The notes: generated from the letters alone by a model not told the origin. A stretch of 57,643 nt of DNA from Pseudomonadota bacterium (GCA_021850555.1 JAJZLX010000267.1:1-57643), one strand, 5' to 3'. Counted from the stretch's first letter, positions 28,049-52,182 are shown. Numbers and translations: made by a program.

Positions 28049-30376
28049 TCAGAAGTTGGCCGAGAATCGCACTCCCCAATAGCGGAACGCATCGCGCGGA
28101 ACCTGCAGACGCTGGTACGAGCCCGGCGACACCCCGTTTCCCGTCGGAGTGATGAACACGGTGTAGAACTGATTGGTCAGGTTGTGCCCGATGAAACTCA
28201 CATGATACTTGCCGTTATCGAATCCGAGATCGAGGGATGCGCCGAGCAGCGAGTAACCCGGCTGCTGCGCCATCGGATTCGGATCGATGTCGAAGTTCGT
28301 GTGACTGGTGTACGAGTAGCTCAAATTGAGGCGCGCCGTGAACGAAGCGTCGTGCAGGGGCAACAGCCAGCTGGGCATGATGGTGAGCTTGTTCTCGGGC
28401 GCAAAGGGAAACATTTCCCCGTCATGCGAGCCGCGGCAGCTTTCCAGTGCCGCGCCCGTCTGCCCCGCGCATGTGTACGACACGATGTACGCCTTGTCGT
28501 ACGCGTAACCTCCGGTAACGCTCAGGCTGTCGGTCGGCTGCCAATCGAAGTCTACCGACGCCCCTTGAGAGCGCACGATACCGGCATTGGTGAGGCTTGT
28601 CGTCACTGCGCCGTTTGTGACCACGAAACTGTTCGCCTGGAAGTTATAGAACGTCTCGTACCAGGCGGAGAGATTCAAGACCAATCTGTCATTGAACAGA
28701 TTGTTCTTCAGGCCGAGCTCGTAGTCATTGGATGTCTCCGGCGCGACCGGGGCGGCGTTGAGCGCCGACATGTTGAAGAACACATTGTACGCCGGCCCAA
28801 GCCATCCCCGGCTATAGGTGGCGTACGCCACCGAATTCCGGGTGATCTTGTACCGGGCGCCGCCTTTTGCGGACCATCCGTTGTTGGCGGTATTTCCCGT
28901 GCCGACATAGCCCGATCCGATTCCAGGTCCCGTCGTCGGCAGATCCTTGCGCGCAAAGGAGTACGCGACGTAATCGTGACTGTACCGCCCGCCGGCGATC
29001 AGACTGAGACGCCGGGTGATGTGGAGCGTCGTCTGCCCGAACAGCGCCTGACTGTCATTTCGTGTATCGAAATGCGCTATTCCGCGCGTATTGAGGTAGG
29101 TGCTGAAGCCCAGCTCGCACGGCTGGAAGCCGGTGTAATTCGCGGGCAGAGTGGAGGCCGTGCACTGCTCGACGTGTCGAATGAAGTAATCCTGTTCGTC
29201 CGTATGCCAGAAGAACGCGCCAACGGTGTAGCTGGCGAATTGATTCGTCGGGGACGAGAGGCGGATTTCCTCGCTGTATTGCTTGTAATCGAGGCCGCCG
29301 CGGTCGTGCATCTTGATATCGAGGGGAGTGACGTAACTGCAGCATCCCGCATGGAAATCGCCGTCCCGCCCCTGGAAGTTGTACCAGCGCTGGAATGCCG
29401 AGATCGACGTCAGGGTGTCGTGCGCGACGTGCCATTGAACCGTCGCCGAAACACCCGCGTTTGTGTTGATCTGACTGGGAATGGTGTCGTTATTTATGCT
29501 GAGCGCGTTCGCTCCCGGAACGGAGGGTTTCAGCTCCGGCAGAAACACGTTCGTCCACGCCGCGTTTGGAACATACCTTCCCAGCACGTCGGCGCAGCAA
29601 TTATCGTTGGAGTGGTAATAGTTTCCCTCGATGGTCACTTTGAGCGAGCTGTCGATGTCATCGACGATCTTTCCCCGCAGCCCCTCGCGACGGTACCCGT
29701 TCGTCTGCTTGTCGTTGTATACGTTGTATATGTTCCCGGGGAAGTCCTCGTAAATCGCCGAGAGCTGGTAGCCGATATGATGGCTCATGGGACCGGAGAG
29801 ATTGAGCCTGGCATGATATTCGTGCCCCTCGTACCACGAGACGCTCGCGTGCCCCTCGAAATGGCGGGTCGGGTCCGGCGTCACGATGTTGATGGCGCCG
29901 GCCGTTGCGTTCATGCCGTACAGCGTGCCTTGCGGTCCGTTCAGGACCTCGATGCGGCTGATATCCGTAAAGGCACTGAATGCCATTCCGGGGCGGCCCA
30001 TGACGACCCCGTCGACCAGCACCGCGACACTGGGTTGCGCGGCGGGAGAGAACGACTGCGTCCCGATTCCTCGAATCGCCAGGGTGGCGTTCGAATTTGT
30101 GTTGCCGCGCTCGAAGGTGAGGGTCGGCACCAGCTTCTGCAGGCTCTCCGCGCTGTCGATGCCGGCGCTCTTCAGGGCCGAGCCCGTTACGACTGTGACG
30201 GAGGCCGGAACCTCCAGGAGAGGCTGATGGCGCTTCTCGGCCGTCACGACGATTTCGGCGAGCTGTGCCGTCGGGGCGACATTTTGTGTGGTCTTCGCCG
30301 CAGTCGCCTGAGCAAGACCGGACAGAGAAAGGAATGCGGCCGGGACGAGCAGTAGTCCAGCGCGAATGAGCCTCAT
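28049..30376 (-). CDS. TonB-dependent outer membrane receptor, putative sulfoquinovoside importer
   Basis: The 775-residue protein has a signal peptide (1-~27), a TonB box (EIVVTAEKR, 41-49), a plug domain (~55-165, with LAIRGIG, VLVDGVVMGRP and GPQGTLYG) and a 22-strand barrel ending in the aromatic terminus RFSANF. It moves a substrate across the outer membrane using TonB energy. The gene has its own promoter with a copy of the three-site palindrome also found at the SQase/gntR and dehydratase/suyA promoters, so I infer that it imports a sulfoquinovoside such as sulfoquinovosyl glycerol. The family alone would not say so. The Shine-Dalgarno is GAGGGGG. Confidence 0.9.
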   Translation of the reverse strand: MRLIRAGLLLVPAAFLSLSGLAQATAAKTTQNVAPTAQLAEIVVTAEKRHQPLLEVPASVTVVTGSALKSAGIDSAESLQKLVPTLTFERGNTNSNATLAIRGIGTQSFSPAAQPSVAVLVDGVVMGRPGMAFSAFTDISRIEVLNGPQGTLYGMNATAGAINIVTPDPTRHFEGHASVSWYEGHEYHARLNLSGPMSHHIGYQLSAIYEDFPGNIYNVYNDKQTNGYRREGLRGKIVDDIDSSLKVTIEGNYYHSNDNCCADVLGRYVPNAAWTNVFLPELKPSVPGANALSINNDTIPSQINTNAGVSATVQWHVAHDTLTSISAFQRWYNFQGRDGDFHAGCCSYVTPLDIKMHDRGGLDYKQYSEEIRLSSPTNQFASYTVGAFFWHTDEQDYFIRHVEQCTASTLPANYTGFQPCELGFSTYLNTRGIAHFDTRNDSQALFGQTTLHITRRLSLIAGGRYSHDYVAYSFARKDLPTTGPGIGSGYVGTGNTANNGWSAKGGARYKITRNSVAYATYSRGWLGPAYNVFFNMSALNAAPVAPETSNDYELGLKNNLFNDRLVLNLSAWYETFYNFQANSFVVTNGAVTTSLTNAGIVRSQGASVDFDWQPTDSLSVTGGYAYDKAYIVSYTCAGQTGAALESCRGSHDGEMFPFAPENKLTIMPSWLLPLHDASFTARLNLSYSYTSHTNFDIDPNPMAQQPGYSLLGASLDLGFDNGKYHVSFIGHNLTNQFYTVFITPTGNGVSPGSYQRLQVPRDAFRYWGVRFSANF

Positions 30377-30406
30377 GGAATCCCCCTCGGAACGTTATCT
30401 CACATG

Positions 30407-30427
30407 TCTTATATAAGATATAAGATA
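30407..30427 (-). promoter_or_regulatory. Operator copy 1 of the sulfoquinovose regulon
   Basis: On the minus strand this is TATCTTATA followed at once by the palindrome TCTTATATAAGA (30407-30418). All 21 bp are identical to the site at 47183-47203. It ends 31 bp upstream of the TonB receptor ATG. The palindrome contains a -10-like TATAAG on each strand, so a bound protein would block the promoter. Confidence 0.8.
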
Positions 30428-30484
30428 AAAATGCAACCCGAGCGAAATCAGGCGGCCCGGGCGTGCCCGGTCGGTGGGCGTGGC

Positions 30485-31126
30485 TCAGACCCCGAGCTTG
30501 GCCAACACTTCCGGAGGTGGGCCCGCGAATCGGGCCGAAGGCTGATAGCCGACATAGCCGAGCTCGGCCACCCCGACCGGCGTGGTGTAATAGCCGATCA
30601 GGCAGATCCGGCGGAAGAGAGCGAAAAAACGCGCCTCGGGTTGCTTGCCCTCGGCGGCACGCGCATGAAGCCCAGCCACCAGGGCCTGCGCCTGCGTCGC
30701 ATCGAGCGTGTGCAGCGGCGCGTTGGCAGCACATTCGAGCGCCGCCAGGCCCTCGAGCACCACGACCCGATCCTGCTGCTGCTGCGGGTAGGGCGCGCTC
30801 ACCCACTCATCGATGAAGTCCGGCACCCCGACCGCACTGGCTGAGGGCGAGGATCCATCTTCGGGCAGGAACACGTCCGCCAGGCGTGCGATCGCGGTCT
30901 TCTGCTGCGCCGCAAGCGTCAACGCCCACGTGACCTGCGGATGCAGCAAATCCGGATCGCGGCCGTAGCCCCGATCTCCGCGCCACGCCGCGCCGATCCG
31001 ATCGGGCCTCTCGGGCGCGGCCGCGCAACCCTGACGGGCCGCGGCGCTGTCGATGTGCACGACGGGCGCGGCGCTCAATGCCAGCGCGCGCAGCAGCCAA
31101 GTCAGCGTTTCACGACGATCAGGCAT
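30485..31126 (-). CDS. Gluconate 2-dehydrogenase subunit 3-like protein (partner of the GMC oxidoreductase)
   Basis: The 213-residue protein belongs to the gluconate 2-dehydrogenase subunit 3 family (LADVFLPEDGSSPSASAVGVPDFIDEWV and the FFALFRRICLIGYYTTPVG tract). A twin-arginine-like start (DRRETLTWLLRALALSAAP) suggests Tat export, carrying the signal-less GMC subunit along as in related FAD sugar dehydrogenases. It overlaps the GMC gene by 8 bp. With the GMC subunit it probably forms a periplasmic dehydrogenase that oxidises a glycoside at C3. I see no cytochrome c subunit nearby, so the electron acceptor is unclear. Confidence 0.85.
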   Translation of the reverse strand: MPDRRETLTWLLRALALSAAPVVHIDSAAARQGCAAAPERPDRIGAAWRGDRGYGRDPDLLHPQVTWALTLAAQQKTAIARLADVFLPEDGSSPSASAVGVPDFIDEWVSAPYPQQQQDRVVVLEGLAALECAANAPLHTLDATQAQALVAGLHARAAEGKQPEARFFALFRRICLIGYYTTPVGVAELGYVGYQPSARFAGPPPEVLAKLGV

Positions 31127-32828
31127 GACGCAACTCCTTACGCAGATACTTGCGCAGATGCTCGCTGGCGCGCCAGGCGAACGCGATGATGGTCAGGGTG
31201 GGATTCTTGTTCGCGCTGCTTGGAAACACCGCCCCGTCGATCACATAGAGGTTGGGCACCCCCCAGACTCGACCGTACGAATCCGTGACCGACTTCCTCG
31301 GATCGGCGCCGGCGCGGGCGCCCCCAACCTCGTGAATCATGCGTCCCGGGGCCGTGATCGCCTGCGCCGGATCGCCCGGCAGCGGGGAGACGAGCTGTCC
31401 GCCCGACGCCTCGATGAATTCCGCCATGCTGCGTTGCGCATGAGCGGTCTGGCGCAGCTCCTGCCCGCTCCACCGCACATCGAAGCACAGCCCCGGGATC
31501 CCCCACGCATCCTTCATCTGCGGGTCGATCACCACCCGGTTGCTGTCGCGCATGACCATCTCACCGCGTTGCGAGAAGCGCACGAAGCTGCCGTAATAGC
31601 GGCGCGCCTCCTCCTTGAGCTGTTTGCCGTAGGTGAGCGGGGAGACCACGTTGAACTGGTCGAACGTGTAGGCCGAGGGCTCGGTCCGTCCGCCGTAAAG
31701 CTCGATATGGTAGCCGCGCGCGAACGGCAGCCGTCCGGCACGCTGCTCGGGCCACAACCACCAAGGGATGAAGATGTGCGGCAGCGAGACGACGCCGTCG
31801 TCGTTGAACGGTGGGAGTCCCTCCATCTGCGGGAACCTCCCCCACACATTGCTGCCGGGGGTGGACAGAACGCCGCGCCCGAGCAGCCCGCTCTCGGCGC
31901 CGATGCCGTCCGGAAAGCGCGCGCTGCGGGAGTTGAACAGTATCCGCACCGATTCCATAGCGCTCGCGCCCAGCATCACGGCGCGGCCGGCAAGGTAGTG
32001 ATGCTGATGGGTGAGGCGATCGACGTAATGCACGCCCCGGGCCGAGCCGTCGGGCGCCAGGTCCACCTCGTAGACCTGAGCGTGCGTGATCGTCGTCAGA
32101 CGTCCGGTCGCCCGTGCCGGGGGCAACATCACGGTCGGGGATTGGAAGTTCGCCCGGATCGCGCAGCCGCGCAGGCAGGGCGAGGCGTAAAAGCAAGCCA
32201 GTCGGCCATTGAGAGGCTGCGTAATGACCGCTTCGTGGCTTGCGACCACCGGCCGGCCGAGTCGGCGGCCTCCCGCGATCACCAGCCGCTCGTACGAGCG
32301 CGGCACGGGCGGAGGCTGCAGACATCCCGGTGGCGAGTTGGGGATGTCAGGCAGGTTCTCGTTCGTGCCGAACACGCCCACCATGCGTTCCGCGCGATCG
32401 TACCAGGGCGCGAACTCGTCGTAGGTGAACGGCCAATCAGCGCCCAATCCATCGAGCGAGTAGGCTTTGAAGTCGTGATTGGCGTAGCGCAGCGCGACCC
32501 GACCCCAGTGATTGGTCCGTCCGCCGAGCATGCGCGCCCGGAACCAACGGAATTCCGTGCCCGGTGCGGTGGTATAGGGCTCCTCCGGCAGGATCCACCC
32601 GCCGTCCACGGTGCCATCGTAAAAGCCGAAGGGTTTGTCGGGCGTGCCGGCATCGGCCAGAGGCGCAGCGCCGTGGCGCTGAAACATGGGCGTCTCACGC
32701 CCCGGATCATAGTAGCGCCCGGCCTCGAGCAGGCAGACGCGCGCACCCAGGCTCGTCAGGACATACGCGGCGGTCCCTCCCGCGGCGCCCGACCCCACGA
32801 TGATGACATCGAACGGCTCAGTGGCCAT
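31119..32828 (-). CDS. FAD-dependent GMC-family sugar/glycoside dehydrogenase
   Basis: The 569-residue flavoprotein has the dinucleotide-binding motif DVIIVGSGAAGGTAAYVL at its N-terminus, the GMC tract GRTNHWGRVALRY, and the C-terminal GMC motif region with NPTLTIIAFAWRASEHL. It resembles the large subunit of gluconate, 2-ketogluconate or glucoside 3-dehydrogenases. It lies between DUF1080 and subunit-3 genes with overlaps of 11 and 8 bp. Together these suggest oxidation of a glycoside to its 3-keto form in the periplasm. The substrate could be a sulfoquinovoside, judging only from gene neighbourhood. Confidence 0.9.
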   Translation of the reverse strand: MATEPFDVIIVGSGAAGGTAAYVLTSLGARVCLLEAGRYYDPGRETPMFQRHGAAPLADAGTPDKPFGFYDGTVDGGWILPEEPYTTAPGTEFRWFRARMLGGRTNHWGRVALRYANHDFKAYSLDGLGADWPFTYDEFAPWYDRAERMVGVFGTNENLPDIPNSPPGCLQPPPVPRSYERLVIAGGRRLGRPVVASHEAVITQPLNGRLACFYASPCLRGCAIRANFQSPTVMLPPARATGRLTTITHAQVYEVDLAPDGSARGVHYVDRLTHQHHYLAGRAVMLGASAMESVRILFNSRSARFPDGIGAESGLLGRGVLSTPGSNVWGRFPQMEGLPPFNDDGVVSLPHIFIPWWLWPEQRAGRLPFARGYHIELYGGRTEPSAYTFDQFNVVSPLTYGKQLKEEARRYYGSFVRFSQRGEMVMRDSNRVVIDPQMKDAWGIPGLCFDVRWSGQELRQTAHAQRSMAEFIEASGGQLVSPLPGDPAQAITAPGRMIHEVGGARAGADPRKSVTDSYGRVWGVPNLYVIDGAVFPSSANKNPTLTIIAFAWRASEHLRKYLRKELRHA

Positions 32829-33609
32829 GGCGGTGCAGCGGACGGACCCAGATGTTACGGAATGCCACGATCGAGGTCGGCTGGCCGTGGTCCTGCAGAC
32901 CGATCGGTCCGCGCTCGGCGTGCGTCACGAATCCGAGCGGGGTCTTGTCCGCGCTCGTATTGCCGTAGATCAGCTGGTGATCCTGCACCACGACACCATC
33001 GAGCAGCACCGTGATGTGCGGCGGCCTCAGCAATGTCTTGCCCCGAAAGCGCGGCGCATTGAAAATGATATCGAGGCTCTGCCACTTGCCGGAGGGCATC
33101 ACCGGCAGCACGAGCGGAGGTGTCTGGCCATAGACCGCGCCGGCCACGCCATCGGCATACGTATGGTCATGACTCGCGTTGAGGATCTGTATCTCGTATA
33201 CCCCCATGAGCCGCACGCCGCTGTTGCCCCGCTCCTGGCCTGCGCCACGGGCGGGATAGGGCTCGCGGAACTCGAGGTGCAGCTGCACGCTGCCGAACTT
33301 GCGCTTCGTAAACAACCAGTTGAAGACCTTGCCGCCCGGCACCATCAAGCCATGCGACTGATGCCAGCCGCCATGGGGATCGGCGGCGAGATTCCACTGC
33401 CCGAGGCCATGACCGTTGAAGAGCACCACCGCATCAGGGGGCGGAGGCAATCCGAGGATCGCCGCTGAAACATGCATCCGCGGCGGCTGCGGCCGGCTCA
33501 TGTCATTGGGAGGCCAGGGTTGCCTCGGTGGCCATGGCCGCGTCACGGCGAATGCCGGAAGAGTGCACAGCACAGCGAGGGCGGCAACGGAGGCATGCAG
33601 TCGTCTCAT
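32818..33609 (-). CDS. DUF1080 / 3-keto-glycoside hydrolase, exported
   Basis: The 263-residue protein has a signal peptide (residues 1-~22) and a DUF1080 (3-keto-disaccharide hydrolase) jelly-roll domain. Recognisable tracts are VVLFNGHGLGQWN, FGSVQLHLEFREP, NSGVRLMGVYEIQILNA and FRNIWVRPL. Members split the glycosidic bond of 3-keto-glycosides, probably by elimination. Placed between the GMC dehydrogenase and a Gfo/Idh reductase, it would release the aglycone (for instance glycerol) from an oxidised glycoside. A proline-rich stretch (~24-45) follows the signal. Confidence 0.87.
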   Translation of the reverse strand: MRRLHASVAALAVLCTLPAFAVTRPWPPRQPWPPNDMSRPQPPRMHVSAAILGLPPPPDAVVLFNGHGLGQWNLAADPHGGWHQSHGLMVPGGKVFNWLFTKRKFGSVQLHLEFREPYPARGAGQERGNSGVRLMGVYEIQILNASHDHTYADGVAGAVYGQTPPLVLPVMPSGKWQSLDIIFNAPRFRGKTLLRPPHITVLLDGVVVQDHQLIYGNTSADKTPLGFVTHAERGPIGLQDHGQPTSIVAFRNIWVRPLHRHGH

Positions 33610-33665
33610 ACTCGGGCTTCCTCATTTACACATACACACCGAAAAACTGCGGATCCCGGCGCCAT

Positions 33666-34679
33666 TCAGGGACGCTCCCAACTCCCGGAGCGCTCGGACC
33701 GGAACAGCGCATCCAGCGCGCGCGCATTGGCAATGGCATCGTCGATGCCAAAAGGCGGCGCGCGACCCTGCGCGATGGCCTCCGAGAAGGCATCGAGCTG
33801 CAACGCATACTGATCGGCCGCCGGCACGCTCTCGACCTCGAGGCCGCAGCCGTACAGGTCCTGGCAGTCGTCGATCAGCAATCGCGTCGGCCGGTCGGCC
33901 GCGGGATTGAACGGCGTCTCGATCGTGAGCCGCCCGCGAGTTCCATACACCACCACGGACTGCGCGCGAGGCAGCGCTGTGCTGACCCCAAAGACCAGTT
34001 GTCGTCCGGAGGGAAAAGCAGCCAGTGCGCTCGTGAAGCGGTCGACCCCGTGGATCGGATCGCGCTCGAACAGGCCAATGACCCGCTCCGGCGGGCTTGC
34101 GAACAGCCACCGTGCGGCAACCAGCGCATATCCGCCGATGTCATACAGCCCCCCGCCACCATGGATGAGGCTGTTGCGCAGGTTCTCTCCCGGCGGGTTG
34201 TCGTACGAGAACCAGCTGTGCACCGCGTGCACCTCGCCCAACCGCTCAGAGCCAACGAGCGCACGCGCCCGCTGCCACTGAGGGTGGAAGCGGATCATGT
34301 ACGCTTCGGCGACGTGCCGGTTGCATCGCCTCGAGGCCTCGCCAATCGCTTGCGCCTGGTCCGAGTTCAGTGCGATCGGCTTCTCGCACAATACATGCTT
34401 GCCCGCCTCTAGCGCGCGCACCGTCCAGGGGAAATGCTGGTCATTGGGAAGCGGGATGTAGACCGCTTCGATCGACCGATCGGCGAGCAGGTCGGCGTAG
34501 GAGCCGTAGGAGCGAGCGATTCCGAACTGCGCGGCCATGGCACTCGCGCGCTGCGGATCGCGCGCCGCGATCGCCACCGCGTGCGCATGACGGGTGGATT
34601 TGAATGCCGGCAGAACGCACCGCGCGGCGATCCGTGCGGCTCCCAGTATGCCCCAGCGTATCGAGCGAGGAGCCGTCAC
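33666..34679 (-). CDS. Gfo/Idh/MocA-family oxidoreductase
   Basis: The 337-residue protein has an N-terminal Rossmann fold (RWGILGAARIAARCVLPAF), the family motif CEKPIAL (~97-103), and a C-terminal alpha/beta domain with GGGGLYDIGGYAL. It starts with GTG one base after the MFS stop codon. In 3-keto-sugar pathways such enzymes reduce the 3-keto sugar back to the parent sugar with NAD(P)H, which fits its place next to DUF1080. The alternative is an NAD-dependent glycosidase (the GH109/GH188 families share this fold, and GH188 includes sulfoquinovosidases). I favour the reductase because of its length and general likeness to sugar dehydrogenases. Confidence 0.85.
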   Translation of the reverse strand: MTAPRSIRWGILGAARIAARCVLPAFKSTRHAHAVAIAARDPQRASAMAAQFGIARSYGSYADLLADRSIEAVYIPLPNDQHFPWTVRALEAGKHVLCEKPIALNSDQAQAIGEASRRCNRHVAEAYMIRFHPQWQRARALVGSERLGEVHAVHSWFSYDNPPGENLRNSLIHGGGGLYDIGGYALVAARWLFASPPERVIGLFERDPIHGVDRFTSALAAFPSGRQLVFGVSTALPRAQSVVVYGTRGRLTIETPFNPAADRPTRLLIDDCQDLYGCGLEVESVPAADQYALQLDAFSEAIAQGRAPPFGIDDAIANARALDALFRSERSGSWERP

Positions 34680-34680
34680 G

Positions 34681-35931: not shown

Positions 35932-36092
35932 ATGTCATCCGTCATTGATTTGCCGCACTCGCAGTGAAGACACGTGGTCGCAGGCTTGGTTGCGCCGAGG
36001 CGCTCGGAGCGTCCGGCAGGCGGCTCGCAGTTGACGCCGAGGCGTTTACGACATAACTTTCGCGTTCGGCGCAAAAGCCGGAGGAGGTCACG

Positions 36093-41163: not shown

Positions 41164-41184
41164 GACTTATATCTTATATAAGAG
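41164..41184 (+). promoter_or_regulatory. Operator copy 2, between SQase and gntR genes
   Basis: The palindrome TCTTATATAAGA (41172-41183) is preceded by ACTTATA, so the 5' half-site differs from copies 1 and 3 only at its outer end. It starts 16 bp upstream of the SQase ATG and lies in the 167-bp region shared with the divergent gntR gene. It should control both genes. Confidence 0.8.
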
Positions 41185-44561: not shown

Positions 44562-44564
44562 TCT

Positions 44565-45362: not shown

Positions 45363-45378
45363 GATCTTGAGTCCCCTG

Positions 45379-47175
45379 TCAGAAGATCGGTGGCTCCGGG
45401 GTGGGCGCCCGGCCTTCGAGAAAATCGAAATCACACCCTTGCGGCGCCTGTGTGACGTGCGCCTGATACAGCGCAGCGTATGAGCGCTGATACTCTCGGG
45501 CCGGAGGACGCCACGCATTGCGCCGGGCGCAGATCTCCTCCTCCGGCACCAGCATGTCCAGACGGCCGGCCGGCACATCCAGGCGCACACGATCTCCTGT
45601 GCGCAGCAGCGCCAACGGTCCGCCGATGGCCGCCTCGGGCGCGACGTGCACGATGCAACAGCCATAGTGCGTCCCGCTCATGCGGCCGTCGCAAATCCGC
45701 ACCATGTCGCGCACGCCCCGGGCGAGCAATTTGCGCGGGATCGGCAGATTCCCCCACTCGGGCATGCCGGGGGCGCCGACCGGGCCGCAATTGCGCAGCA
45801 CCAGAACGGTGTTCTCGTCCACCGGCAATGACGGATCGTCAATGCGCGCCGACAGCTCGGCGTGCGAGTCGAACACCAACGCCGGACCCTCGTGGCGCAT
45901 CAAGCGCGGATCGGCGGCGCTTGATTTGAGCACGGCTCCATCGGGACAGAGGTTGCCGCGCACCACATCGAGCGTGCGCCCGCGGCTGAGCGGCACCACC
46001 GGCTCGTCCAGCCCGCGAATGATCGTGTCGTCATAACAAGGCGCGCCGGCTATTGCGGCACCCAGCGTGCGCCCCTCCACGGTGAGGCAGTCGAGGTCGA
46101 GCCGGGCCGCGGTCTTGGCGAGCAGCGCCGGCAGTCCCCCTGCGAAATAGAAGTCCTCCATGAGCCGATCGCCGGACGGAAAAAGATTGGCGCAGACCGG
46201 GATGTCGCGCGCAATTGCGCCCAGATCCTCGAGCGTCACCCGGATGCCGGCACGGCCGGCCATCGCGATCAGATGAATCGCGGCGTTGGTGGATCCGCCG
46301 AGTGCCATGTAGACCGTGGCAGCGTTACGGAACGCTGCCGCCGAGAGGATCTGGGACGGCCTCAGGTCCTCGTGAACCATGGCGACGATGCGCGAGCCGC
46401 ACTCCGAGGCCATGCGCACGTGGCCGGAATCGGCCGCCGGGATCGAGGAGGCGCCGCGCAAGGTCAACCCCAATGCCTCGGCGACGGCGCTCATGGTGGA
46501 CGCTGTCCCCATCGTATTGCAGGTGCCGATCGAGCGGGTCATGCGCGACTCCAGATCGATCCAGTCATCGGGAGTGATGTTCCCGGCACGCAGCTCGTCC
46601 CAATATTTCTTGGTATGCGTTCCCGCTCCGGTGCGCACCCCGCGCCATTGCCCGTTGGACATCGGCCCCGCGGGACACACGATTGCCGGCAAATCCATGC
46701 TGATCGCTCCCATCAGCATCCCCGGAATCGACTTGTCGCACCCACCCAGCAGCACCGCCCCGTCGATCGGGTGCGAGCGCAGCAATTCTTCAGTCTCCAT
46801 GGCGAGAAAATTCCGGTAGAGCATGGTCGTGGGCTTGACCATGACCTCCCCGACCGAGAGTGCCGGAAGCTCGACCGGGTAGCCCCCGGCAAGCAAGACG
46901 CCACGCTTGACCGCCTCGGCGCGCTCACGCAGATGCGCATGACACGGACTCATGTCGCTCCACGTATTGATGATCGCGATGACCGGCCGGCCCAGGAATT
47001 CCTCGCGGCGCAGGCCCATCTGCTGGGTGCGCTGCCGGTGAGCGAAGCCGCGCATGTCGTCGCGCTCGTACCACCTGGCGCTACGCAATTCGCGCCGGCC
47101 CGCGGCTGGCCCGACGCTCGAATCGTTGGTCTGCGCCTGCGCGCAGGCACGAGAAGATCTTGTCTTTGTCGCCAT
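45379..47175 (-). CDS. IlvD/Edd-family dehydratase, putative 6-deoxy-6-sulfogluconate dehydratase
   Basis: The 598-residue protein is an Fe-S dehydratase of the sugar-acid branch. Cluster-binding cysteines lie in SDMSPCHAHL, GGCDKSIPG and IGTCNTMGTAST. Tracts like RSARWYERDDMRGFAHR match arabinonate-type dehydratases. It would remove water from sulfogluconate to form 2-keto-3-deoxy-sulfogluconate. It is the first gene of the five-gene sulfo-ED operon. The ATG has no Shine-Dalgarno, and operator copy 3 begins 7 bp upstream, so the message may be leaderless or nearly so. Confidence 0.92.
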   Translation of the reverse strand: MATKTRSSRACAQAQTNDSSVGPAAGRRELRSARWYERDDMRGFAHRQRTQQMGLRREEFLGRPVIAIINTWSDMSPCHAHLRERAEAVKRGVLLAGGYPVELPALSVGEVMVKPTTMLYRNFLAMETEELLRSHPIDGAVLLGGCDKSIPGMLMGAISMDLPAIVCPAGPMSNGQWRGVRTGAGTHTKKYWDELRAGNITPDDWIDLESRMTRSIGTCNTMGTASTMSAVAEALGLTLRGASSIPAADSGHVRMASECGSRIVAMVHEDLRPSQILSAAAFRNAATVYMALGGSTNAAIHLIAMAGRAGIRVTLEDLGAIARDIPVCANLFPSGDRLMEDFYFAGGLPALLAKTAARLDLDCLTVEGRTLGAAIAGAPCYDDTIIRGLDEPVVPLSRGRTLDVVRGNLCPDGAVLKSSAADPRLMRHEGPALVFDSHAELSARIDDPSLPVDENTVLVLRNCGPVGAPGMPEWGNLPIPRKLLARGVRDMVRICDGRMSGTHYGCCIVHVAPEAAIGGPLALLRTGDRVRLDVPAGRLDMLVPEEEICARRNAWRPPAREYQRSYAALYQAHVTQAPQGCDFDFLEGRAPTPEPPIF

Positions 47176-47182
47176 AAATGGT

Positions 47183-47203
47183 TATCTTATATCTTATATA
47201 AGA
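47183..47203 (+). promoter_or_regulatory. Operator copy 3, between the sulfo-ED operon and suyA
   Basis: TATCTTATA is followed at once by the palindrome TCTTATATAAGA (47192-47203); the 21 bp equal copy 1. The spacer between the divergent genes is only 53 bp, so one site must serve both operons. TATAAG boxes occur on each strand within the palindrome and could be overlapping -10 elements. I see no good -35 on either side. Confidence 0.85.
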
Positions 47204-47228
47204 GCTGCGCCACTGAGGACTTTTCCCA

Positions 47229-47519
47229 ATGCCGAAACATCCGCAATTGCTCGTTCACGACCACCGCGACAACGTCGGTGTGGTTGTGGTCGAGGATCTC
47301 ACCGCGGGAACCGACATTCTGGGTGTCGTGACCGAGGATAACAGCGAAATCCGCGCCGTGTGCAATCAGGACGTGCCAATCGGCCACAAGGTTGCCTTGC
47401 GCGATCTGGCGGTTGGCGAGTCGGTGATCAAGTACGGACAGGACATCGGTAAAGTCATCAAACCGATCCGGCGCGGCGATCACGTGCATACCCACAACCT
47501 CAAGACCAAGCGCTGGTGA
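47229..47519 (+). CDS. suyA: (R)-sulfolactate sulfo-lyase subunit alpha
   Basis: The 96-residue protein has the SAF fold of altronate-dehydratase N-terminal domains and SuyA hallmarks: [17 protein letters not shown] at the start and [12 protein letters not shown] at the end. With SuyB it eliminates sulfite from (R)-3-sulfolactate, yielding pyruvate. A TGAGGA Shine-Dalgarno precedes it. suyB follows 4 bp later. The small, separate alpha subunit is typical of Suy rather than of UxaA, which is one polypeptide. Confidence 0.92.
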
Positions 47520-47523
47520 GATC

Positions 47524-48699
47524 ATGGCAACTGTGAATCGGACCATTTGGGGCTACCGCCGCGAAAACGGCCGCGTCGGCGTGCGCAATTACGTCGCGGT
47601 CCTGCCCCTCGACGATATCTCCAATGCCGCGTGCGAGGCGGTCGCCGCACATATCAAAGGCACGATTGCCCTGCCCCACGCCTACGGGCGCCTGCAGTTC
47701 GGCGAGGATCTCGAACTGCACTTCCGGACCATGATCGGCACCGGCGCCAACCCGAACGTCGCCGCTTGCATCGTCATCGGCATCGAGCCGCAATGGACAC
47801 AGCATGTCGTCGACGGCATCGCGCAGACGGGCAAGCCGGTGGCGGGCTTCTCCATCGAAGGCAACGGCGACATCGCGACGATCGCGGCGGCCTCGCGCAA
47901 GGCGAAGGAATTCGTGCACATCGCCAGCGCAAAAGTGCGTCAAGAATGCCCGATCACCGATCTGTGGGTCGCGGCAAAGTGCGGCGAGAGCGACACCACG
48001 ACCGGGCTTGCCTCCTGTCCGACGGTGGGCAACATGTACGACAAGCTCATTCCGGCGGGTCTGTACGGCTGCTTCGGTGAGACCTCCGAGCTGACCGGCG
48101 CCGAGCGCCTGGCCGCCGCGCGCGCGGCGACGCCGGAGATTGCCGAGAAGTTCATGCGCACCTTCACCGCCTACCAGCAGGAGGTCATCGAGGCGCACAA
48201 GACCTCCGATCTATCCGACAGTCAGCCCACCAAGGGCAACATCGCCGGCGGCCTGACCACCATCGAGGAGAAGGCGCTCGGCAATCTCGAGAAAATCGGC
48301 AAGCAGGTCCGCTTCATCGACGTGCTGCAGCCGGCCGAGGCGCCGGGACGCGGCCCGGGCCTGTACTTCATGGACACCTCCTCCGCCGCGGCCGAGTGCT
48401 GCACGCTGCAGTCCGCGGCCGGCTATGTCGTGCACTGCTTCCCCACGGGTCAGGGCAACGTGATCGGCAACCCGATCATGCCGGTAATCAAGATCAGCGG
48501 AAATCCGCGCACTGTGCGCACCATGAGCGAGCACATTGATCTTGATGTCTCGGGGGTCATACGCCGAGAGATGACCATCGCCCAGGCCGGCGATGCGCTG
48601 ATCGAGGCCATCGTGCAAACTGCCAACGGGCGCTACACCTGCGCCGAGGCGCTCGGTCACCACGAATTCGTGATGACCAAACTCTATCGCAGCGCTTGA
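47524..48699 (+). CDS. suyB: (R)-sulfolactate sulfo-lyase subunit beta
   Basis: The 391-residue protein is the UxaA/GarD C-terminal family and matches Suy[32 protein letters not shown] at the N-terminus, [10 protein letters not shown], and [20 protein letters not shown]. Together with SuyA it forms the lyase that releases sulfite and pyruvate, the step that frees sulfur in this cluster. It lies between suyA and comC. Confidence 0.92.
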
Positions 48700-48711
48700 G
48701 TCGCGTTGCAC

Positions 48712-49728
48712 ATGCCTACGCTCAGCATCGCCGAGTGCGAGCAGCTGGCGCAGCGGGCGCTGGCGGGGAGCGGCGCCGCTGCGGGACCAAGCGGGTCGAC
48801 CGCGCGCGCGCTGGTGGCGGCGGAGGTTGACGGGCAGTCCGGACACGGTCTTGGGCGGGTCCCGAGCTATGCCGCTCAGGTTCGCGCCGGCAAGGTCGAC
48901 GGCAATGCCCTGCCGAGCTTTCGGCGGCTGCGCCCCGCGGCGGTGCGCATCGACGCGGCGCGCGGCTTTGCCTATCCGGCACTTGACCTCGCGGTCGAGA
49001 CCTTGCCTGGACTCGCCCGAGAGTATGGGGTGGCGGGAGCGACGATCCATCGCTCGCACCACATCGGCGCGGCCGGCTACACGGCCGAGCGTCTGGCGCA
49101 ACACGGATGCGTGGCGCTCGTGTGCTCGAACACACCGAGCGCCATGGCCTTCGCCGGCGGAATTCGTCCGATGATGGGCACCAATCCGATCGCATTCGCT
49201 GCCCCCCTTCCCGGCCGCGTGCCGCTGGTCATCGACATGGCGCTCTCCCAGGTAGCCCGCAGCCGCATCGTCGCGGCCCAGAAAGCCGGCGAAGCGATCC
49301 CCTCGGAGTGGGCGATCGACCGCGCCGGCGAGCCCACGACCGATCCGAGCGCCGCCCTCTCGGGTGCCCTCAGGCCGGCCGGCGGGGTCAAGGGCGCCGC
49401 CCTGGCGCTCATCGTGGAGATTCTCTGCGGAGCACTCGCCGGCGGGCACTACGGCTGGGAGGCAAGCTCGTTCCTCGACGACCAGGGCCCCTCGCCCGCC
49501 GTGGGCCAGGTACTGCTGGCGCTCGACGCCGAGGCTCTGTCGGCCGGGGGCTTTGCCGGACGGATGTCCGAGTTGATCGAGGTGATGAACGCCGAGAGCG
49601 GAGTGCGGATTCCAGGCGATCGGCGGCTCTCGAGCCGGGCCCGCGCCAACGCTCACGGAGTGGAGGTGGGGGCGCAGTTGTACGCAACTCTCACCGGACT
49701 GGCGAACGAGGCGGGGACGGCGCAATGA
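48712..49728 (+). CDS. comC: (R)-sulfolactate dehydrogenase, malate/L-lactate dehydrogenase family
   Basis: From ATG at 48712 this is a 338-residue member of the type-2 malate/L-lactate dehydrogenase family. Signatures are IHRSHHIGAAGYTAERLA and GTNPIAFAAP (NAD-binding and catalytic regions). ComC interconverts sulfopyruvate and (R)-sulfolactate. Next to slcC and suyAB it gives the known two-dehydrogenase racemisation of sulfolactate. It overlaps slcC by 4 bp. A TTG six bases earlier is less likely as start. Confidence 0.86.
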   Translation: MPTLSIAECEQLAQRALAGSGAAAGPSGSTARALVAAEVDGQSGHGLGRVPSYAAQVRAGKVDGNALPSFRRLRPAAVRIDAARGFAYPALDLAVETLPGLAREYGVAGATIHRSHHIGAAGYTAERLAQHGCVALVCSNTPSAMAFAGGIRPMMGTNPIAFAAPLPGRVPLVIDMALSQVARSRIVAAQKAGEAIPSEWAIDRAGEPTTDPSAALSGALRPAGGVKGAALALIVEILCGALAGGHYGWEASSFLDDQGPSPAVGQVLLALDAEALSAGGFAGRMSELIEVMNAESGVRIPGDRRLSSRARANAHGVEVGAQLYATLTGLANEAGTAQ

Positions 49729-50654
49729 CCGACATCGTGATAAGCGAATTCATGGACGAGGCCGCGATCCGGGAGCACCTGGGTGAATTCGATGTGCTCT
49801 ACGATCCGAAGCTCGTCGAGCAGCCGCAGCGGCTGTACGCCATGCTGAGTGATTGCCGTGCGCTCGTGGTGCGCAATCGCACCCAGGTGCGCGGGGCACT
49901 ACTCGAGGCGGCACCGGGCCTTCGGGTCGTCGGCCGCCTTGGGGTGGGACTCGATAACATAGACGTCTCGGCCTGCACCGCGCGCGGCATCCGCGTGTGC
50001 CCGGCAACGGGCGCCAATGATCTCGCGGTCGCCGAATACGTGATCTGTGCCGCCCTGTTGCTGCTCCGGCGCGCTTGGTTCGCGACGGCGGAGGTAGCCG
50101 CCGGGAAATGGCCGCGCATGGAGTTGATCGGCCGGGAGCTCGCCGGCAAGCGCCTCGGCCTGGTCGGATTCGGCGCAATTGCTCGCCTGACGGCCCGCAA
50201 GGCGCTCGCGCTCGGCATGACGGTGGCCGCGTACGACCCGTTCGTCGAGCCGCGCGATGAGGCATGGCACGGTATCGAGCGCCAGGAGCTGGCACCGCTC
50301 CTCGCCGCCAGCGAAATCGTCAGCCTGCACATACCGCTCACCCCGCAGACCCGACACCTGATCAACGGGCAGGCGATAGCGGAGATGCGCCCCGGATCGA
50401 TCCTGATCAATGCGGCGCGCGGCGGCGTGGTCGATGAAGCCGCACTGATCGAAGCCCTGCGCACGCGACGGCTCGGCGGCGCGGCGCTCGACGTATTCGA
50501 GAGCGAGCCGCTGACGGCGGCAAGCGGCGCCGCCTGGCTGGATCTGCCCAATCTCCTGTTGACCCCCCACATCGCCGGCGTGACCGAGGAATCGAACGTG
50601 CGCGTGAGTCAGGTGGTGGCGCGGGCGGTTCGAGAGGCGCTTGACGACCGCTGA
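49725..50654 (+). CDS. slcC: (S)-sulfolactate dehydrogenase, D-2-hydroxyacid dehydrogenase family
   Basis: The 309-residue protein is a D-isomer-specific 2-hydroxyacid dehydrogenase of the phosphoglycerate dehydrogenase type. The cofactor motif is GLVGFGAIA (~143-151), the catalytic Arg lies in NAARGGVVDE and the catalytic His in LTPHIAG. SlcC oxidises (S)-sulfolactate to sulfopyruvate. The sulfolactaldehyde dehydrogenase of the sulfo-ED route makes (S)-sulfolactate, while SuyAB needs the (R) form, so this enzyme and ComC bridge the two. The start ATG overlaps the comC stop (ATGA). Confidence 0.87.
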   Translation: MTDIVISEFMDEAAIREHLGEFDVLYDPKLVEQPQRLYAMLSDCRALVVRNRTQVRGALLEAAPGLRVVGRLGVGLDNIDVSACTARGIRVCPATGANDLAVAEYVICAALLLLRRAWFATAEVAAGKWPRMELIGRELAGKRLGLVGFGAIARLTARKALALGMTVAAYDPFVEPRDEAWHGIERQELAPLLAASEIVSLHIPLTPQTRHLINGQAIAEMRPGSILINAARGGVVDEAALIEALRTRRLGGAALDVFESEPLTAASGAAWLDLPNLLLTPHIAGVTEESNVRVSQVVARAVREALDDR

Positions 50655-50709
50655 ACGCCCGCCGGGACGCCAATCCGACCCGCTCCGGCAAGTGCAAGTG
50701 AGTGATACC

Positions 50710-52182
50710 ATGAGACTCGAAGACACGACACTGCTGCGGCAACAATGCCTGATTGGCGGCAGCTGGAAGGACGCGGTGAGTGGCGCGACTGTCGCGGTGC
50801 ACAACCCGGCCACCGGCGAGCGGCTTGGAACTGTGCCCAACATGGGCGCAGCCGAGACCCGCCAGGCCATCGAGGCGGCCTCCGGCGCCCTGCCAGCCTG
50901 GGCTGCCCGCCCGGCCAAGGAGCGCGCGACTGTTCTGCGGCGCTGGTACGACCTCCTCCTGGCTCACCAGAACGACCTGGCCGTCCTGATGACCGCCGAG
51001 CAGGGCAAGCCGCTCGCCGAAGCGCGGGGCGAGATCGCCTTCGCCGCCGCCTTCATCGAATGGTTCGGCGAGGAAGCCAAGCGGGTGTACGGTGATGTCA
51101 TCCCGGGACAGAGCGCGGACAAGCGCATCATCGTTTTGCGTCAACCGATCGGCGTGGTAGCGGCGATCACCCCATGGAACTTCCCCGCCGCCATGATCGC
51201 CCGCAAGGCCGGTCCGGCGCTGGCCGCCGGCTGCACTTTCGTGTGCAAGCCAGCGCTGCAAACACCCTACTCCGCGCTTGCGCTCGCCGAGCTCGCGGTC
51301 CGCGCCGGTGTGCCGCCCGGAGTATTCAATGTCCTCACGGGTGCGGCGACCGAGATCGGCGGCGAGATGACCTCTAACCCACTGGTGCGCAAAGTAACCT
51401 TCACCGGTTCTACCAGCATCGGCAAACGGCTGATGGCCCAGTGCGCCGGGACGGTGAAAAAGCTCTCGCTGGAGCTCGGCGGCAACGCGCCATTCATCGT
51501 GTTCGATGACGCGGACATCGATGCAGCGGTGCAGGGGGCGATTGCAAGCAAGTACCGCAACACCGGCCAGACGTGCGTGTGCCCAAACCGCTTCCTGATC
51601 CAGGACGGTGTGTACGACGAGTTCGCGCGCAAGCTCAAGGCCGCGGTCGAGAAACTGCGGGTCGGCGACGGACTGGCGGGCCCCACCGATCAGGGACCGC
51701 TGATCGACGTCAACGCGTTGAGCAAGGTGCAGCAGCACGTATCGGACGCAGTAGGCAAGGGAGCCAAGGTCATCACGGGTGGCAAGCGCCACACGCTCGG
51801 CGGCACGTTCTTCGAGCCGACCATCCTCCGCGACGTGACGGCCGACATGCGCGTTGCGCAAGAGGAGATTTTCGGCCCGGTCTCTCCGCTATTTCGCTTC
51901 TCGACCGAAGCAGAGGCGATCGCGCTCGCCAATGCCACCGAGTTCGGCCTGGCCTCCTATCTTTACACTCGCGATCTGGCCCGCAGCTGGCGAGTGTCCG
52001 AGGCGCTCGAGTACGGCATGGTCGCGCTCAACACGGGGCTGTTCTCCACGGAGGTGGCGCCGTTCGGCGGAGTCAAGGAATCGGGGATCGGCCGCGAAGG
52101 GTCGAAGTACGGAATTCTCGACTACACTGAGCTCAAATACGTCTGCGTGGGCGGCATCGAGGCGCCCGCCGGAACCGGATGA
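50710..52182 (+). CDS. Aldehyde dehydrogenase, putative 3-sulfolactaldehyde dehydrogenase
   Basis: From ATG at 50710 this has 490 residues and resembles GabD-type succinate semialdehyde dehydrogenases. The catalytic Cys is in NTGQTCVCPNR, the Glu in LELGGNAPF, and the cofactor site in TPWNFPAAMIARK. It would oxidise the aldehyde from the aldolase to 3-sulfolactate with NAD(P). Known sulfolactaldehyde dehydrogenases of sulfo-ED are close relatives of GabD. It is the last gene of the suyA-suyB-comC-slcC unit, 55 bp after slcC. Confidence 0.9.
   Translation: MRLEDTTLLRQQCLIGGSWKDAVSGATVAVHNPATGERLGTVPNMGAAETRQAIEAASGALPAWAARPAKERATVLRRWYDLLLAHQNDLAVLMTAEQGKPLAEARGEIAFAAAFIEWFGEEAKRVYGDVIPGQSADKRIIVLRQPIGVVAAITPWNFPAAMIARKAGPALAAGCTFVCKPALQTPYSALALAELAVRAGVPPGVFNVLTGAATEIGGEMTSNPLVRKVTFTGSTSIGKRLMAQCAGTVKKLSLELGGNAPFIVFDDADIDAAVQGAIASKYRNTGQTCVCPNRFLIQDGVYDEFARKLKAAVEKLRVGDGLAGPTDQGPLIDVNALSKVQQHVSDAVGKGAKVITGGKRHTLGGTFFEPTILRDVTADMRVAQEEIFGPVSPLFRFSTEAEAIALANATEFGLASYLYTRDLARSWRVSEALEYGMVALNTGLFSTEVAPFGGVKESGIGREGSKYGILDYTELKYVCVGGIEAPAGTG

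What the first reader, a model, noticed from the sequence alone, without database searches (positions are those of the whole stretch)
28049..52182. Single-locus gene set for complete sulfoquinovose mineralisation (sulfo-ED plus SuyAB)
The cluster holds genes for every step from sulfoquinovosyl glycerol to pyruvate, pyruvate, glycerol carbon and sulfite: SQase, mutarotase, SQ dehydrogenase, lactonase, dehydratase, aldolase, sulfolactaldehyde dehydrogenase, SlcC, ComC and SuyAB, with a TonB receptor, an MFS permease, GlpK, GlpD and a GntR regulator. Sulfo-ED as first described ends by excreting sulfolactate for other bacteria to finish. Here the sulfolactate module is divergently linked to it through a shared operator, so one cell should do both. 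Enzyme families are seen in the sequence; substrates are inferred from known pathways. I do not claim that no similar cluster has been reported.
Basis: partly seen in the sequence, partly recalled or inferred. Interest (0 to 1): 0.95.

Follow-up and report, generated by a model that had tools for sequence, protein, structure and literature searches.

The report
One-cell sulfoquinovose-to-sulfite gene cluster
One bacterial DNA stretch carries side by side the genes predicted to free the plant sulfur-sugar sulfoquinovose from its glycerol, split it and strip off its sulfur as sulfite, a job usually described as shared between two microbes, and three identical DNA signals suggest that one regulator likely switches most of it on.

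Summary
The window carries a 20-gene cluster (28049-52182) with GH31 sulfoquinovosidase, mutarotase, SQ dehydrogenase, lactonase, dehydratase, aldolase, aldehyde dehydrogenase, SlcC, ComC and SuyAB homologues, plus TonB receptor, MFS, GlpK, GlpD and GntR. Residues point to SQ: the SQase keeps R/W/Y of the sulfonate site, and the SDR keeps all ten positions checked of P. putida SQ dehydrogenase, whose sulfonate arginines the next two solved relatives lack. The 17-mer CTTATATCTTATATAAG, a putative operator, occurs exactly three times (before TonB, between SQase and gntR, between dehydratase and suyA) and also beside suyA in many loci without sulfo-ED genes, so SQ genes seem to have joined a sulfolactate regulon. 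The cluster recurs in related MAGs and, without one cassette, in strain AAP38. Sulfo-ED is usually described as excreting sulfolactate (or DHPS); an ED route with SuyAB is reported for sulfofucose. In the papers I saw, none reports sulfo-ED plus SuyAB in one cluster: a new variant of a known kind. I identified no sulfite-disposal gene, so the pathway ends at sulfite.

The parts
28049..30376 (-). TonB-dependent outer-membrane receptor, predicted uptake of SQ glycosides
   Evidence: NCBIfam TonB receptor matches, below their cut-offs; 17-mer 31 bp upstream
30408..30424 (-). putative operator copy 1 (exact 17-mer) upstream of TonB
   Evidence: found at this site in G001-G005, G560, G561 with 0-1 mismatch
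30485..31126 (-). Gluconate_2-dh3 small subunit, twin-arginine-like start MPDRRETLTWLL (by eye)
   Evidence: PF13618 E 2.3e-18; sequence
31119..32828 (-). GMC dehydrogenase, predicted glycoside 3-dehydrogenase, C-x5-C-x3-C kept
   Evidence: PF05199; nearest solved relatives glucose/fructose dehydrogenase large subunits; Cys 212/218/222, kept in 6 of 6 orthologues checked
32818..33609 (-). DUF1080 / 3-keto-disaccharide hydrolase family protein, signal-like start (by eye)
   Evidence: PF06439 E 2e-35; sequence; 4qhz
33666..34679 (-). Gfo/Idh/MocA oxidoreductase, predicted 3-keto reductase (D-x3-Y motif)
   Evidence: PF01408/PF22725; nearest solved: 4had, aldose-aldose oxidoreductase, sugar 3-ketoreductase
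34681..35931 (-). MFS permease
   Evidence: PF07690 E 7.8e-45
36093..37577 (+). glycerol kinase GlpK
   Evidence: TIGR01311 above cut-off
37534..39129 (-). glycerol-3-phosphate dehydrogenase GlpD
   Evidence: PRK12266 above cut-off
39130..41148 (-). GH31 sulfoquinovosidase
   Evidence: PRK10426 equivalog above cut-off; best PDB chains 5ohy/5ohs, named yihQ; R291, W294, D397, D464, Y500 match R283, W286, D388, D455, Y491 of that chain
41166..41182 (+). putative operator copy 2 between SQase and gntR
41316..42035 (+). GntR/UTRA regulator, predicted to bind the 17-mer
   Evidence: PF00392 + PF07702
42041..42808 (-). SDR, predicted SQ dehydrogenase
   Evidence: best PDB match sulfoquinovose 1-dehydrogenase 9gwu, E 3.1e-86; SQ-contact residues kept
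42805..43674 (-). SMP-30/SGL lactonase
   Evidence: PF08450 E 5.8e-77
43671..44561 (-). aldose-1-epimerase family, predicted SQ mutarotase
   Evidence: PF01263 E 6.3e-30
44565..45362 (-). HpcH/HpaI aldolase, predicted KDSG aldolase
   Evidence: PF03328; NCBIfam aldolase models, below cut-offs; 61% to the aldolase of the WSM4643 cluster
45379..47175 (-). IlvD/Edd dehydratase, predicted SG dehydratase
   Evidence: 73% to the dehydratase of the WSM4643 cluster
47186..47202 (+). putative operator copy 3 between dehydratase and suyA
47229..47519 (+). SuyA, sulfolactate sulfo-lyase small subunit
   Evidence: SAF domain; 50% to the small UxaA-family protein beside SuyB in Cupriavidus pinatubonensis HN-2
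47524..48699 (+). SuyB, sulfolactate sulfo-lyase large subunit
   Evidence: PF20629/PF04295; 66% to C. pinatubonensis, then a gap down to 41% and less among 28 plasmid records
48706..49728 (+). ComC-like Ldh-family dehydrogenase
   Evidence: NF040650 L-sulfolactate dehydrogenase 186.5 bits, below its cut-off of 500; follows suyB here and in relatives
49725..50654 (+). SlcC-like 2-hydroxyacid (PGDH-family) dehydrogenase
50710..52182 (+). aldehyde dehydrogenase, predicted SLA dehydrogenase
   Evidence: passes the SSADH model PRK11241, 833.6 against 828; 58% to the ALDH of the WSM4643 cluster; 8c54 (recalled as RlGabD) among its 8 PDB hits

Best explanation
The locus holds a 20-gene cluster predicted to degrade sulfoquinovosyl glycerol within one cell to two pyruvate, dihydroxyacetone phosphate and sulfite, by a sulfo-Entner-Doudoroff module joined to a sulfolactate sulfo-lyase (SuyAB) module, and one GntR-family regulator likely controls most of it through a 17-bp motif that stands at three places. 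Predicted order of steps: TonB receptor and MFS bring in SQ or SQ-glycerol; GH31 SQase frees SQ and glycerol; glycerol goes through GlpK and GlpD; SQ goes through mutarotase, SQ dehydrogenase, lactonase, dehydratase and aldolase to pyruvate and (S)-sulfolactaldehyde; the ALDH makes (S)-sulfolactate; SlcC and ComC invert it to (R)-sulfolactate through sulfopyruvate; SuyAB yields pyruvate and sulfite. Shown here: gene content, key residues, copies of the motif, synteny. Inferred: every reaction, GntR binding to the motif, the operons and the inducer. Motif and regulator also accompany suyAB where no sulfo-ED genes were found, so the SQ genes appear to have been captured into a sulfolactate regulon. 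A four-gene cassette between MFS and TonB would, as the likeliest reading of its families, oxidise a glycoside at C3 in the periplasm, release the aglycone and reduce the 3-keto sugar back; whether SQ glycosides are its substrate is open.
For: Families above curated cut-offs for SQase, GlpK, GlpD. SQase: R/W/Y (sulfonate role recalled) and both catalytic Asp kept. SDR: nearest solved chain is P. putida SQ dehydrogenase; the ten positions of PMC12133307 that I checked are identical (D45, D99, R101, N119, S147, R152, R154, Y160, K164, Q198; Gln260 not checked), while 4lvu and 7wwx lack R152 and R154. The sulfo-ED-type cluster of Rhizobium sp. WSM4643 shares SQase 63%, SDR 72%, lactonase 49%, aldolase 61%, dehydratase 73%, ALDH 58%; its plasmid is not among the 28 plasmid records with a SuyB match at E 1e-50. 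SuyB is 66% to C. pinatubonensis HN-2, in the same gene run as hpsN and hpsO. 17-mer exactly 3 times, expected 0; at the same three sites in G002-G005, G560 and G561 with 0 or 1 mismatch; within 300 bp upstream of suyA at <=2 mismatches in 40 of 76 scorable loci (80 fetched, 3 too short, 1 without SuyA hit), against 3 of 1381 random windows and 0 of 1520 shuffles. Synteny: 20 of 20 genes in G002, G003, G004, 19 of 20 in G005 and G560, no GlpK hit in the last two. 19 of 80 SuyB loci carry SDR, aldolase and dehydratase hits (each >40% identity) in the fetched flank. In a sample of 200 genomes of G002's family, 15 of 17 with the SQase also have SuyB, 11 of these 15 on the same contig; 15 of the other 183 have SuyB (both at E <= 1e-100). 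Strain AAP38, whose record is not titled a MAG, has 16 of the 20 genes on one 24-kb stretch.
Against: No activity, expression or growth data. NCBIfam's L-arabinonate dehydratase equivalog passes its cut-off on the dehydratase (891.5 against 882) and the succinate-semialdehyde dehydrogenase equivalog passes on the ALDH (833.6 against 828). The ComC-like protein is below the sulfolactate dehydrogenase cut-off. No sulfite dehydrogenase or TauE was identified in the locus; the Oxidored_molyb-type gene met among the scanned frames is MsrP. The 17-mer is absent from the MFS/glpK intergenic region, so the MFS-cassette run and glpK are not shown to be under GntR. 36 of 76 scored loci have no copy at <=2 mismatches upstream of suyA, 21 none at <=3. 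SuyAB also adjoins other sugar modules, so linkage alone does not prove SQ. 2 of 17 SQase genomes had no SuyB hit (G427, G525); G427's SQase lies on a 17-kb contig without ED hits in the 16 kb seen, G525's on a 7.3-kb contig. 11 of the 17 SQase genomes had already been reached through SuyB, so the family sample may not be independent of that scan, and relatedness is not corrected.
Confidence: 0.86

Rival explanations
1. Two co-regulated but separate pathways: sulfo-ED excretes sulfolactate, and SuyAB serves sulfolactate or cysteate taken from outside.
For: The motif is common beside suyA in loci without a dehydratase hit (25 of 56 scored, <=2 mismatches). The MFS permease could in principle export or import sulfolactate.
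Against: No tripartite or other dedicated sulfolactate transporter was identified in the cluster, unlike the two Paracoccus plasmid loci listed with tripartite transporters; the ALDH gene predicted to make sulfolactate lies in the suyAB-comC-slcC gene run.
Confidence: 0.08
2. A pentonate or sugar-acid pathway for unsulfonated sugars (xylose/arabinose type) that merely adjoins a sulfolactate module.
For: Dehydratase passes the L-arabinonate dehydratase cut-off; the SDR's best NCBIfam model is D-xylose 1-dehydrogenase, 299.6, below its cut-off of 400.
Against: SQ-dehydrogenase residues and SQase R/W/Y kept; the WSM4643 dehydratase in a GH31/SDR/SGL/aldolase cluster carries the same automatic L-arabinonate label; 17-mer shared with suyA.
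Confidence: 0.03
3. The sugar is sulfofucose, as in Paracoccus wurundjeri.
For: That strain couples an ED-like pathway to a proposed SlcC/ComC/SuyAB route (PMC12421959, passages and Discussion part 1 of 2).
Against: The paper puts the sulfofucose dehydratase in PF13378/PF02746 and the SQ one in PF00920, and reports two SQases inactive on a sulfofucoside; here the dehydratase is of the IlvD/Edd family and a GH31 SQase is present.
Confidence: 0.02
4. For the four-gene cassette only: it acts on a different glycoside (for instance galactosyl glycerol released with the sulfolipid), not on SQ glycosides.
For: In G009 the homologous cassette lies on another contig with its own MFS and TonB genes and no 17-mer at <=2 mismatches in the stretch seen; 62%-identical GMC genes with small subunit and DUF1080 in G648 and G653 are in genomes without an SQase hit at E <= 1e-20; a 48% relative on a Pseudoalteromonas plasmid stands with MFS, DUF1080, Gfo/Idh and isomerases, no SQ gene listed; the 17-mer is missing before MFS and cassette.
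Against: GMC orthologues of >=70% identity occurred in 7 of 17 SQase genomes and 0 of 183 others of the family sample (36 of 200 had some GMC match at E <= 1e-100, the rest <=53% identical), 5 of the 7 within 8 kb of the SQase; relatedness not corrected.
Confidence: 0.5

Closest known systems
[quoted passage not shown] Rhizobium leguminosarum SRDI565; WSM4643-type cluster; Vibrio splendidus JLJ25)
   Same: Same enzyme families and order of steps to sulfolactaldehyde; 49-73% identity to WSM4643 enzymes.
   Different: Those named in the passages I saw end in sulfolactate or, in Vibrio, DHPS. WSM4643 has TauE, an ABC transporter and LacI, no suyAB listed. Here SuyAB, SlcC, ComC, GntR, TonB and MFS. 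One passage notes Ensifer sp. HO-A22 as a sulfo-ED cluster that overlaps with DHPS-degrading ones, which I did not follow.
Tandem sulfofucolytic ED + SlcC/ComC/SuyAB of Paracoccus wurundjeri (PMC12421959)
   Same: ED-like sulfosugar cleavage coupled to sulfolactate sulfolyase in one bacterium; the four ED enzymes rebuilt in vitro, the sulfolyase part proposed from proteomics and sulfite release.
   Different: Sugar sulfofucose, other dehydratase family, ABC uptake, no glycosidase found, SLA dehydrogenase unknown.
Extended sulfo-TAL clusters with SuyAB (PMC9594981) and sulfo-EMP-like actinobacterial clusters with SuyAB (PMC11465081)
   Same: SQ cluster carrying its own SuyAB.
   Different: Other upstream chemistry; read from gene neighbourhoods in both.
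LacABC + DUF1080 lactose route of Caulobacter crescentus (PMC9007349)
   Same: Multi-subunit glycoside 3-dehydrogenase beside a DUF1080 protein, a sugar reductase and a transporter (that LacA is a GMC protein and LacC a Gluconate_2-dh3 protein is recalled).
   Different: No cytochrome c motif in a plausible frame beside the cassette here; sits in an SQ cluster; substrate unknown.
GH188 NAD-dependent SQases (PMC10755693)
   Same: Oxidoreductase-type fold like Gfo/Idh/MocA, C3 oxidation chemistry on SQ glycosides.
   Different: No 8QC entry among the 42 distinct PDB sequences at E <= 1e-10; SQ contacts Glu189 and His193 in GH188, where the window's D-x3-Y motif seems to lie (not aligned).

Membership tests
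Sulfo-ED pathway | SQ dehydrogenase with SQ/sulfonate-binding residues | tested here: met
   ten of ten positions checked, Gln260 not checked
Sulfo-ED pathway | SGL lactonase, IlvD/Edd dehydratase, HpcH/HpaI aldolase, ALDH in one cluster | tested here: met
   (families and synteny; substrates not tested)
Sulfo-ED pathway | enzymes act on SQ, SGL, SG, KDSG, SLA | not testable with these tools
   needs enzyme assays
GH31 sulfoquinovosidase | catalytic Asp pair and R/W/Y sulfonate site | tested here: met
   roles of these residues and the Agrobacterium origin of 5ohs/5ohy are recalled
SuyAB (R)-sulfolactate sulfo-lyase | small SAF subunit beside UxaA-type large subunit, large subunit >60% to that of a sulfonate gene run | tested here: met
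SuyAB (R)-sulfolactate sulfo-lyase | sulfite and pyruvate from (R)-sulfolactate | not testable with these tools
   no assay
Sulfofucolytic ED | dehydratase of PF13378/PF02746 | tested here: not met
   dehydratase is IlvD/Edd family by NCBIfam; feature from PMC12421959
GH188 NAD-dependent SQase (Gfo/Idh gene 33666-34679) | sequence kinship to SqgA and its SQ-contact residues | tested here: inconclusive
   not among 42 PDB sequences at E <= 1e-10; D-x3-Y in the window and 6 of 6 orthologues; no alignment with a GH188 sequence was made
LacABC/DUF1080 3-keto-glycoside system | GMC + Gluconate_2-dh3 + DUF1080 adjacent | tested here: met
LacABC/DUF1080 3-keto-glycoside system | cytochrome c subunit (recalled) | tested here: not met
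   one CxxCH in six frames of 28000-37600, in a frame antisense to TonB with a stop right after it
GntR operator regulon | GntR binds the 17-mer | not testable with these tools
   only co-occurrence shown

The most novel reading that the evidence does not exclude
The cluster has two gateways into sulfoquinovose: a cytoplasmic GH31 hydrolase for alpha-glycosides and a periplasmic 3-keto route (GMC dehydrogenase, DUF1080 lyase/hydrolase, Gfo/Idh reductase) that cleaves sulfoquinovosides whatever their anomer or aglycone, feeding a one-cell SQ-to-sulfite pathway run by a sulfolactate regulon.
Probability: 0.32. Interest if true: 0.82.

Novelty: new variant of a known kind. Interest (0 to 1): 0.6.

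Why it matters
Sulfoquinovose is made in very large amounts by plants, algae and cyanobacteria, and the sulfo-ED pathway is usually described as leaving its sulfur in sulfolactate for another bacterium. A conserved set of mostly uncultured bacteria that would take SQ to sulfite alone, under one regulator, changes where cross-feeding is needed. It also suggests how such a pathway may arise: by bringing SQ genes under the operator of an existing sulfolactate module. ED-type genes here and EMP-like genes in other loci both stand beside that module; in the EMP-like group the motif before suyA is weaker (6 of 9 loci at <=3 mismatches).

Tried and rejected
GH188-type SQase for the Gfo/Idh gene: set aside, not disproved. 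Sulfofucose: set aside on dehydratase family. Pentonate pathway: set aside on SQ-type residues and neighbours. Sulfite fate: TauE (PF01925) was found in 8 of 8 relatives but also in 14 of 14 controls; PF00174 in 7 of 8 relatives and 9 of 14 controls; neither decides anything, and the window's gene of that kind is MsrP. Class-wide SQase sampling gave 2 of 369 genomes, one of them the centre itself. A search for residues gained in 7 SQ-linked GMC proteins against 105 others gave several (for instance H118, R192, R363, R417, R431), which could mean an anionic substrate, but I could not place them in a structure, so I draw nothing from it. Rfam and tRNA scans of the window were empty. No structure was predicted. 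Paper searches. Among the papers seen in them (listings, passages, two sections) none reports sulfo-ED plus SuyAB in one cluster or a 3-keto route for SQ; mBio 2025 (Discussion part 1 of 2) calls coexistence of sulfoglycolysis and biomineralisation in one bacterium unusual and cites a Klebsiella that turned about 10% of SQ sulfur to sulfate by an unknown route. The library leaves out most subscription papers.

Full report
What is in the sequence. Twenty intact genes fill 28049-52182. On the minus strand from right to left: dehydratase, aldolase, aldose epimerase, SGL lactonase and SDR; then, across a + strand GntR gene, GH31 SQase and GlpD; then, across a + strand GlpK gene, MFS, Gfo/Idh, DUF1080, GMC, Gluconate_2-dh3 and TonB receptor. 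On the plus strand from 47229: SuyA, SuyB, ComC-like, SlcC-like, ALDH. A LysR gene follows at 52287-53234.

Substrate tests. The SQase passes the PRK10426 equivalog cut-off by far (908.8 against 553). Its best PDB chains are 5ohy and 5ohs, named yihQ; that they are the Agrobacterium SQase is recalled. R283, W286, D388, D455 and Y491 of that chain are identical in the window; that R, W and Y hold the sulfonate is recalled. The SDR is closest to P. putida SQ dehydrogenase (E 3.1e-86). Ten residues that the paper names for cofactor, catalysis and SQ contact (PMC12133307, passages) are the same, at the same numbers except D45, which is D47 here; Gln260 was not checked. The next two solved SDRs lack both sulfonate arginines. 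For the ALDH, arginines stand at what look by eye like the proposed sulfonate positions of RlGabD (PMC10599462, passages and section 11), but I did not align the two, and the same stretches stand in E. coli GabD, so this does not discriminate. The ALDH passes an SSADH model (833.6 against 828) and the dehydratase an L-arabinonate dehydratase model (891.5 against 882); both are placed by context and by 58% and 73% identity, and the aldolase by 61%, to a Rhizobium WSM4643 plasmid cluster with GH31, SDR, lactonase and TauE, whose dehydratase bears the same automatic label.

SuyAB. At E 1e-50, 28 plasmid records match SuyB: 13 at 59.6-77.1% identity and 15 at 40.6% or less. The Cupriavidus pinatubonensis HN-2 copy, 66%, lies in the same gene run as hpsN and hpsO. 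WSM4643's plasmid is not among the 28.

One motif, three sites. The 17-mer CTTATATCTTATATAAG is found exactly at 30408-30424, 41166-41182 and 47186-47202; with up to 3 mismatches all 8 matches lie at these three places, and shuffles give none. It sits at the same three places in G002-G005, G560 and G561 with 0 or 1 mismatch. It is not confined to SQ clusters: of 80 SuyB loci from genome contigs, 76 could be scored, and 40 have it within 300 bp upstream of suyA at 2 or fewer mismatches (55 at 3 or fewer, 21 at 4 or more), against 3 of 1381 random windows and 0 of 1520 shuffled ones (5 of 1381 and 0 of 1520 at 3 or fewer); of 56 scored loci without a dehydratase hit, 25 have it at 2 or fewer. 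So the simplest account is a sulfolactate regulon that took in SQ genes. That the GntR protein binds it is inferred. Counting gene runs as operons, it would lead 14 of the 20 genes. The MFS/glpK intergenic region lacks it; a TTGAC...TAACTT promoter-like stretch for glpK is conserved there by eye.

Conservation. Gene order is the same in G002, G003 and G004 (20 of 20 genes) and in G005 and G560 (19 of 20, no GlpK hit); G001's genes are on several short contigs. In a sample of 200 genomes of G002's family, 17 have the SQase, 30 have SuyB, 15 both, 11 of these on one contig. 11 of the 17 had already been reached through SuyB, so this is not a fully independent count. Of the 80 SuyB loci, 19 have SDR, aldolase and dehydratase hits above 40% identity, and 10 of these also an SQase above 55% inside the fetched flank. 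Strain AAP38, whose record is not titled a MAG, carries 16 of the 20 genes, all but the cassette (GlpD only 36% over 371 of 531 residues), between about 195.4 and 219.8 kb of one contig, with motif-like sites at 2-3 mismatches. The window's own species is not known; a named 3-keto-disaccharide hydrolase of a Steroidobacteraceae MAG is 78% identical, so a Steroidobacteraceae-like gammaproteobacterium is my inference.

The cassette. Between MFS and TonB lie Gfo/Idh, DUF1080, GMC and Gluconate_2-dh3, overlapping or closely spaced. The GMC protein is closest in the PDB to glucose and fructose dehydrogenase large subunits and keeps the C-x5-C-x3-C of the former (its iron-sulfur role is recalled). 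The small subunit starts MPDRRETLTWLL (twin-arginine-like) and DUF1080 starts with a signal-like stretch, both by eye. This resembles the LacABC/DUF1080 pattern (PMC9007349, passages; the make-up of LacABC is recalled) without a cytochrome. In G561 the same SQ cluster lacks exactly these four genes: TonB, motif and MFS adjoin. GMC orthologues of 70% or more are in 7 of 17 SQase genomes and 0 of 183 others of the family sample (36 of 200 had some match at E <= 1e-100, the rest at 53% or less); 5 of the 7 are within 8 kb of the SQase. Against an SQ role: G009 has its cassette on another contig with its own MFS and TonB genes and no motif in the stretch seen; 62% homologues in G648 and G653 are in genomes without an SQase hit; a 48% relative on a Pseudoalteromonas plasmid stands in a neutral-sugar-like context; and the motif is missing in front of MFS. 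I give an SQ role about one in three.

What is known. The January 2026 review says of sulfo-ED that sulfolactate can be mineralised by other bacteria (PMC12890257, passages); Vibrio sulfo-ED ends in DHPS (PMC13372026, passages). SuyAB in sulfo-TAL clusters (PMC9594981, passages) and in EMP-like actinobacterial clusters (PMC11465081, passages) is read from gene neighbourhoods. For sulfofucose an ED route was rebuilt in vitro and SuyAB proposed downstream from proteomics and sulfite release (PMC12421959, passages and Discussion part 1 of 2). In the papers I saw, sulfo-ED plus SuyAB is thus a new pairing of known modules rather than a new kind of chemistry. I also saw SuyAB, ComC and SlcC homologues beside an EMP-like set (PfkB, DeoC/LacD aldolase, a GH31 at 29% to the window's SQase, TonB, GlpK, GlpD; no isomerase identified) in a Steroidobacteraceae MAG, L016. 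Nine loci have such a low-identity GH31 and no dehydratase; 6 of 9 have the motif before suyA at 3 or fewer mismatches. So the sulfolactate module seems to accept either upstream half.

Limits. Everything on function is inference from sequence. Family counts are not corrected for relatedness. MAG contigs can be broken or misbinned. Sulfite's fate is unknown.

Noticed in passing
window 53382-57643: IS66-type TnpA (53382-53867) followed by a TnpB-like frame that stops early and seems to go on near the window end; between them three adjacent tyrosine recombinases on the minus strand (54076-55239, 55080-56018, 56015-57256), like a recombinase-in-trio element inside an IS66 element (element name and TnpB recalled by eye).
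   Followed up: partly
L016 1041-16206: EMP-like genes (PfkB kinase, DeoC/LacD aldolase, GH31) with SuyAB, ComC, SlcC, GlpD, GlpK, GntR and TonB in a Steroidobacteraceae MAG: another kind of sulfosugar cluster tied to a sulfolactate module; L023, L027, L031 and L036 show a similar pattern of hits.
   Followed up: partly
L056 469 and 3686; L062 3462: Further copies of the 17-mer (0-1 mismatch) in Nitratireductor and Rhizobiaceae sulfolactate loci 6-9 kb from suyA, near genes that I did not identify; possibly further regulon members.
   Followed up: no
L034/L196, contig positions 195429-219822 of LJHR01000004.1: Strain AAP38 carries the SQ-SuyAB set without the cassette on one contig and could be the cultured test organism.
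   Followed up: partly
window 108-4880 and 16388-17413: CydD-type exporter with cytochrome bd subunits I and II, and MsrP, the one sulfite-oxidase-fold gene met among the frames that I scanned.
   Followed up: no
L009: SuyAB, ComC, GntR, a lactonase-family hit, GlpK and GlpD without SG dehydratase or SQase in the fetched stretch; upstream substrate unknown.
   Followed up: no
G003:C104 21635-22987 and G005:C7 11391-12625: About 1.2-1.35 kb extra between SQase and GlpD in two relatives, absent from the window; gene not identified.
   Followed up: no
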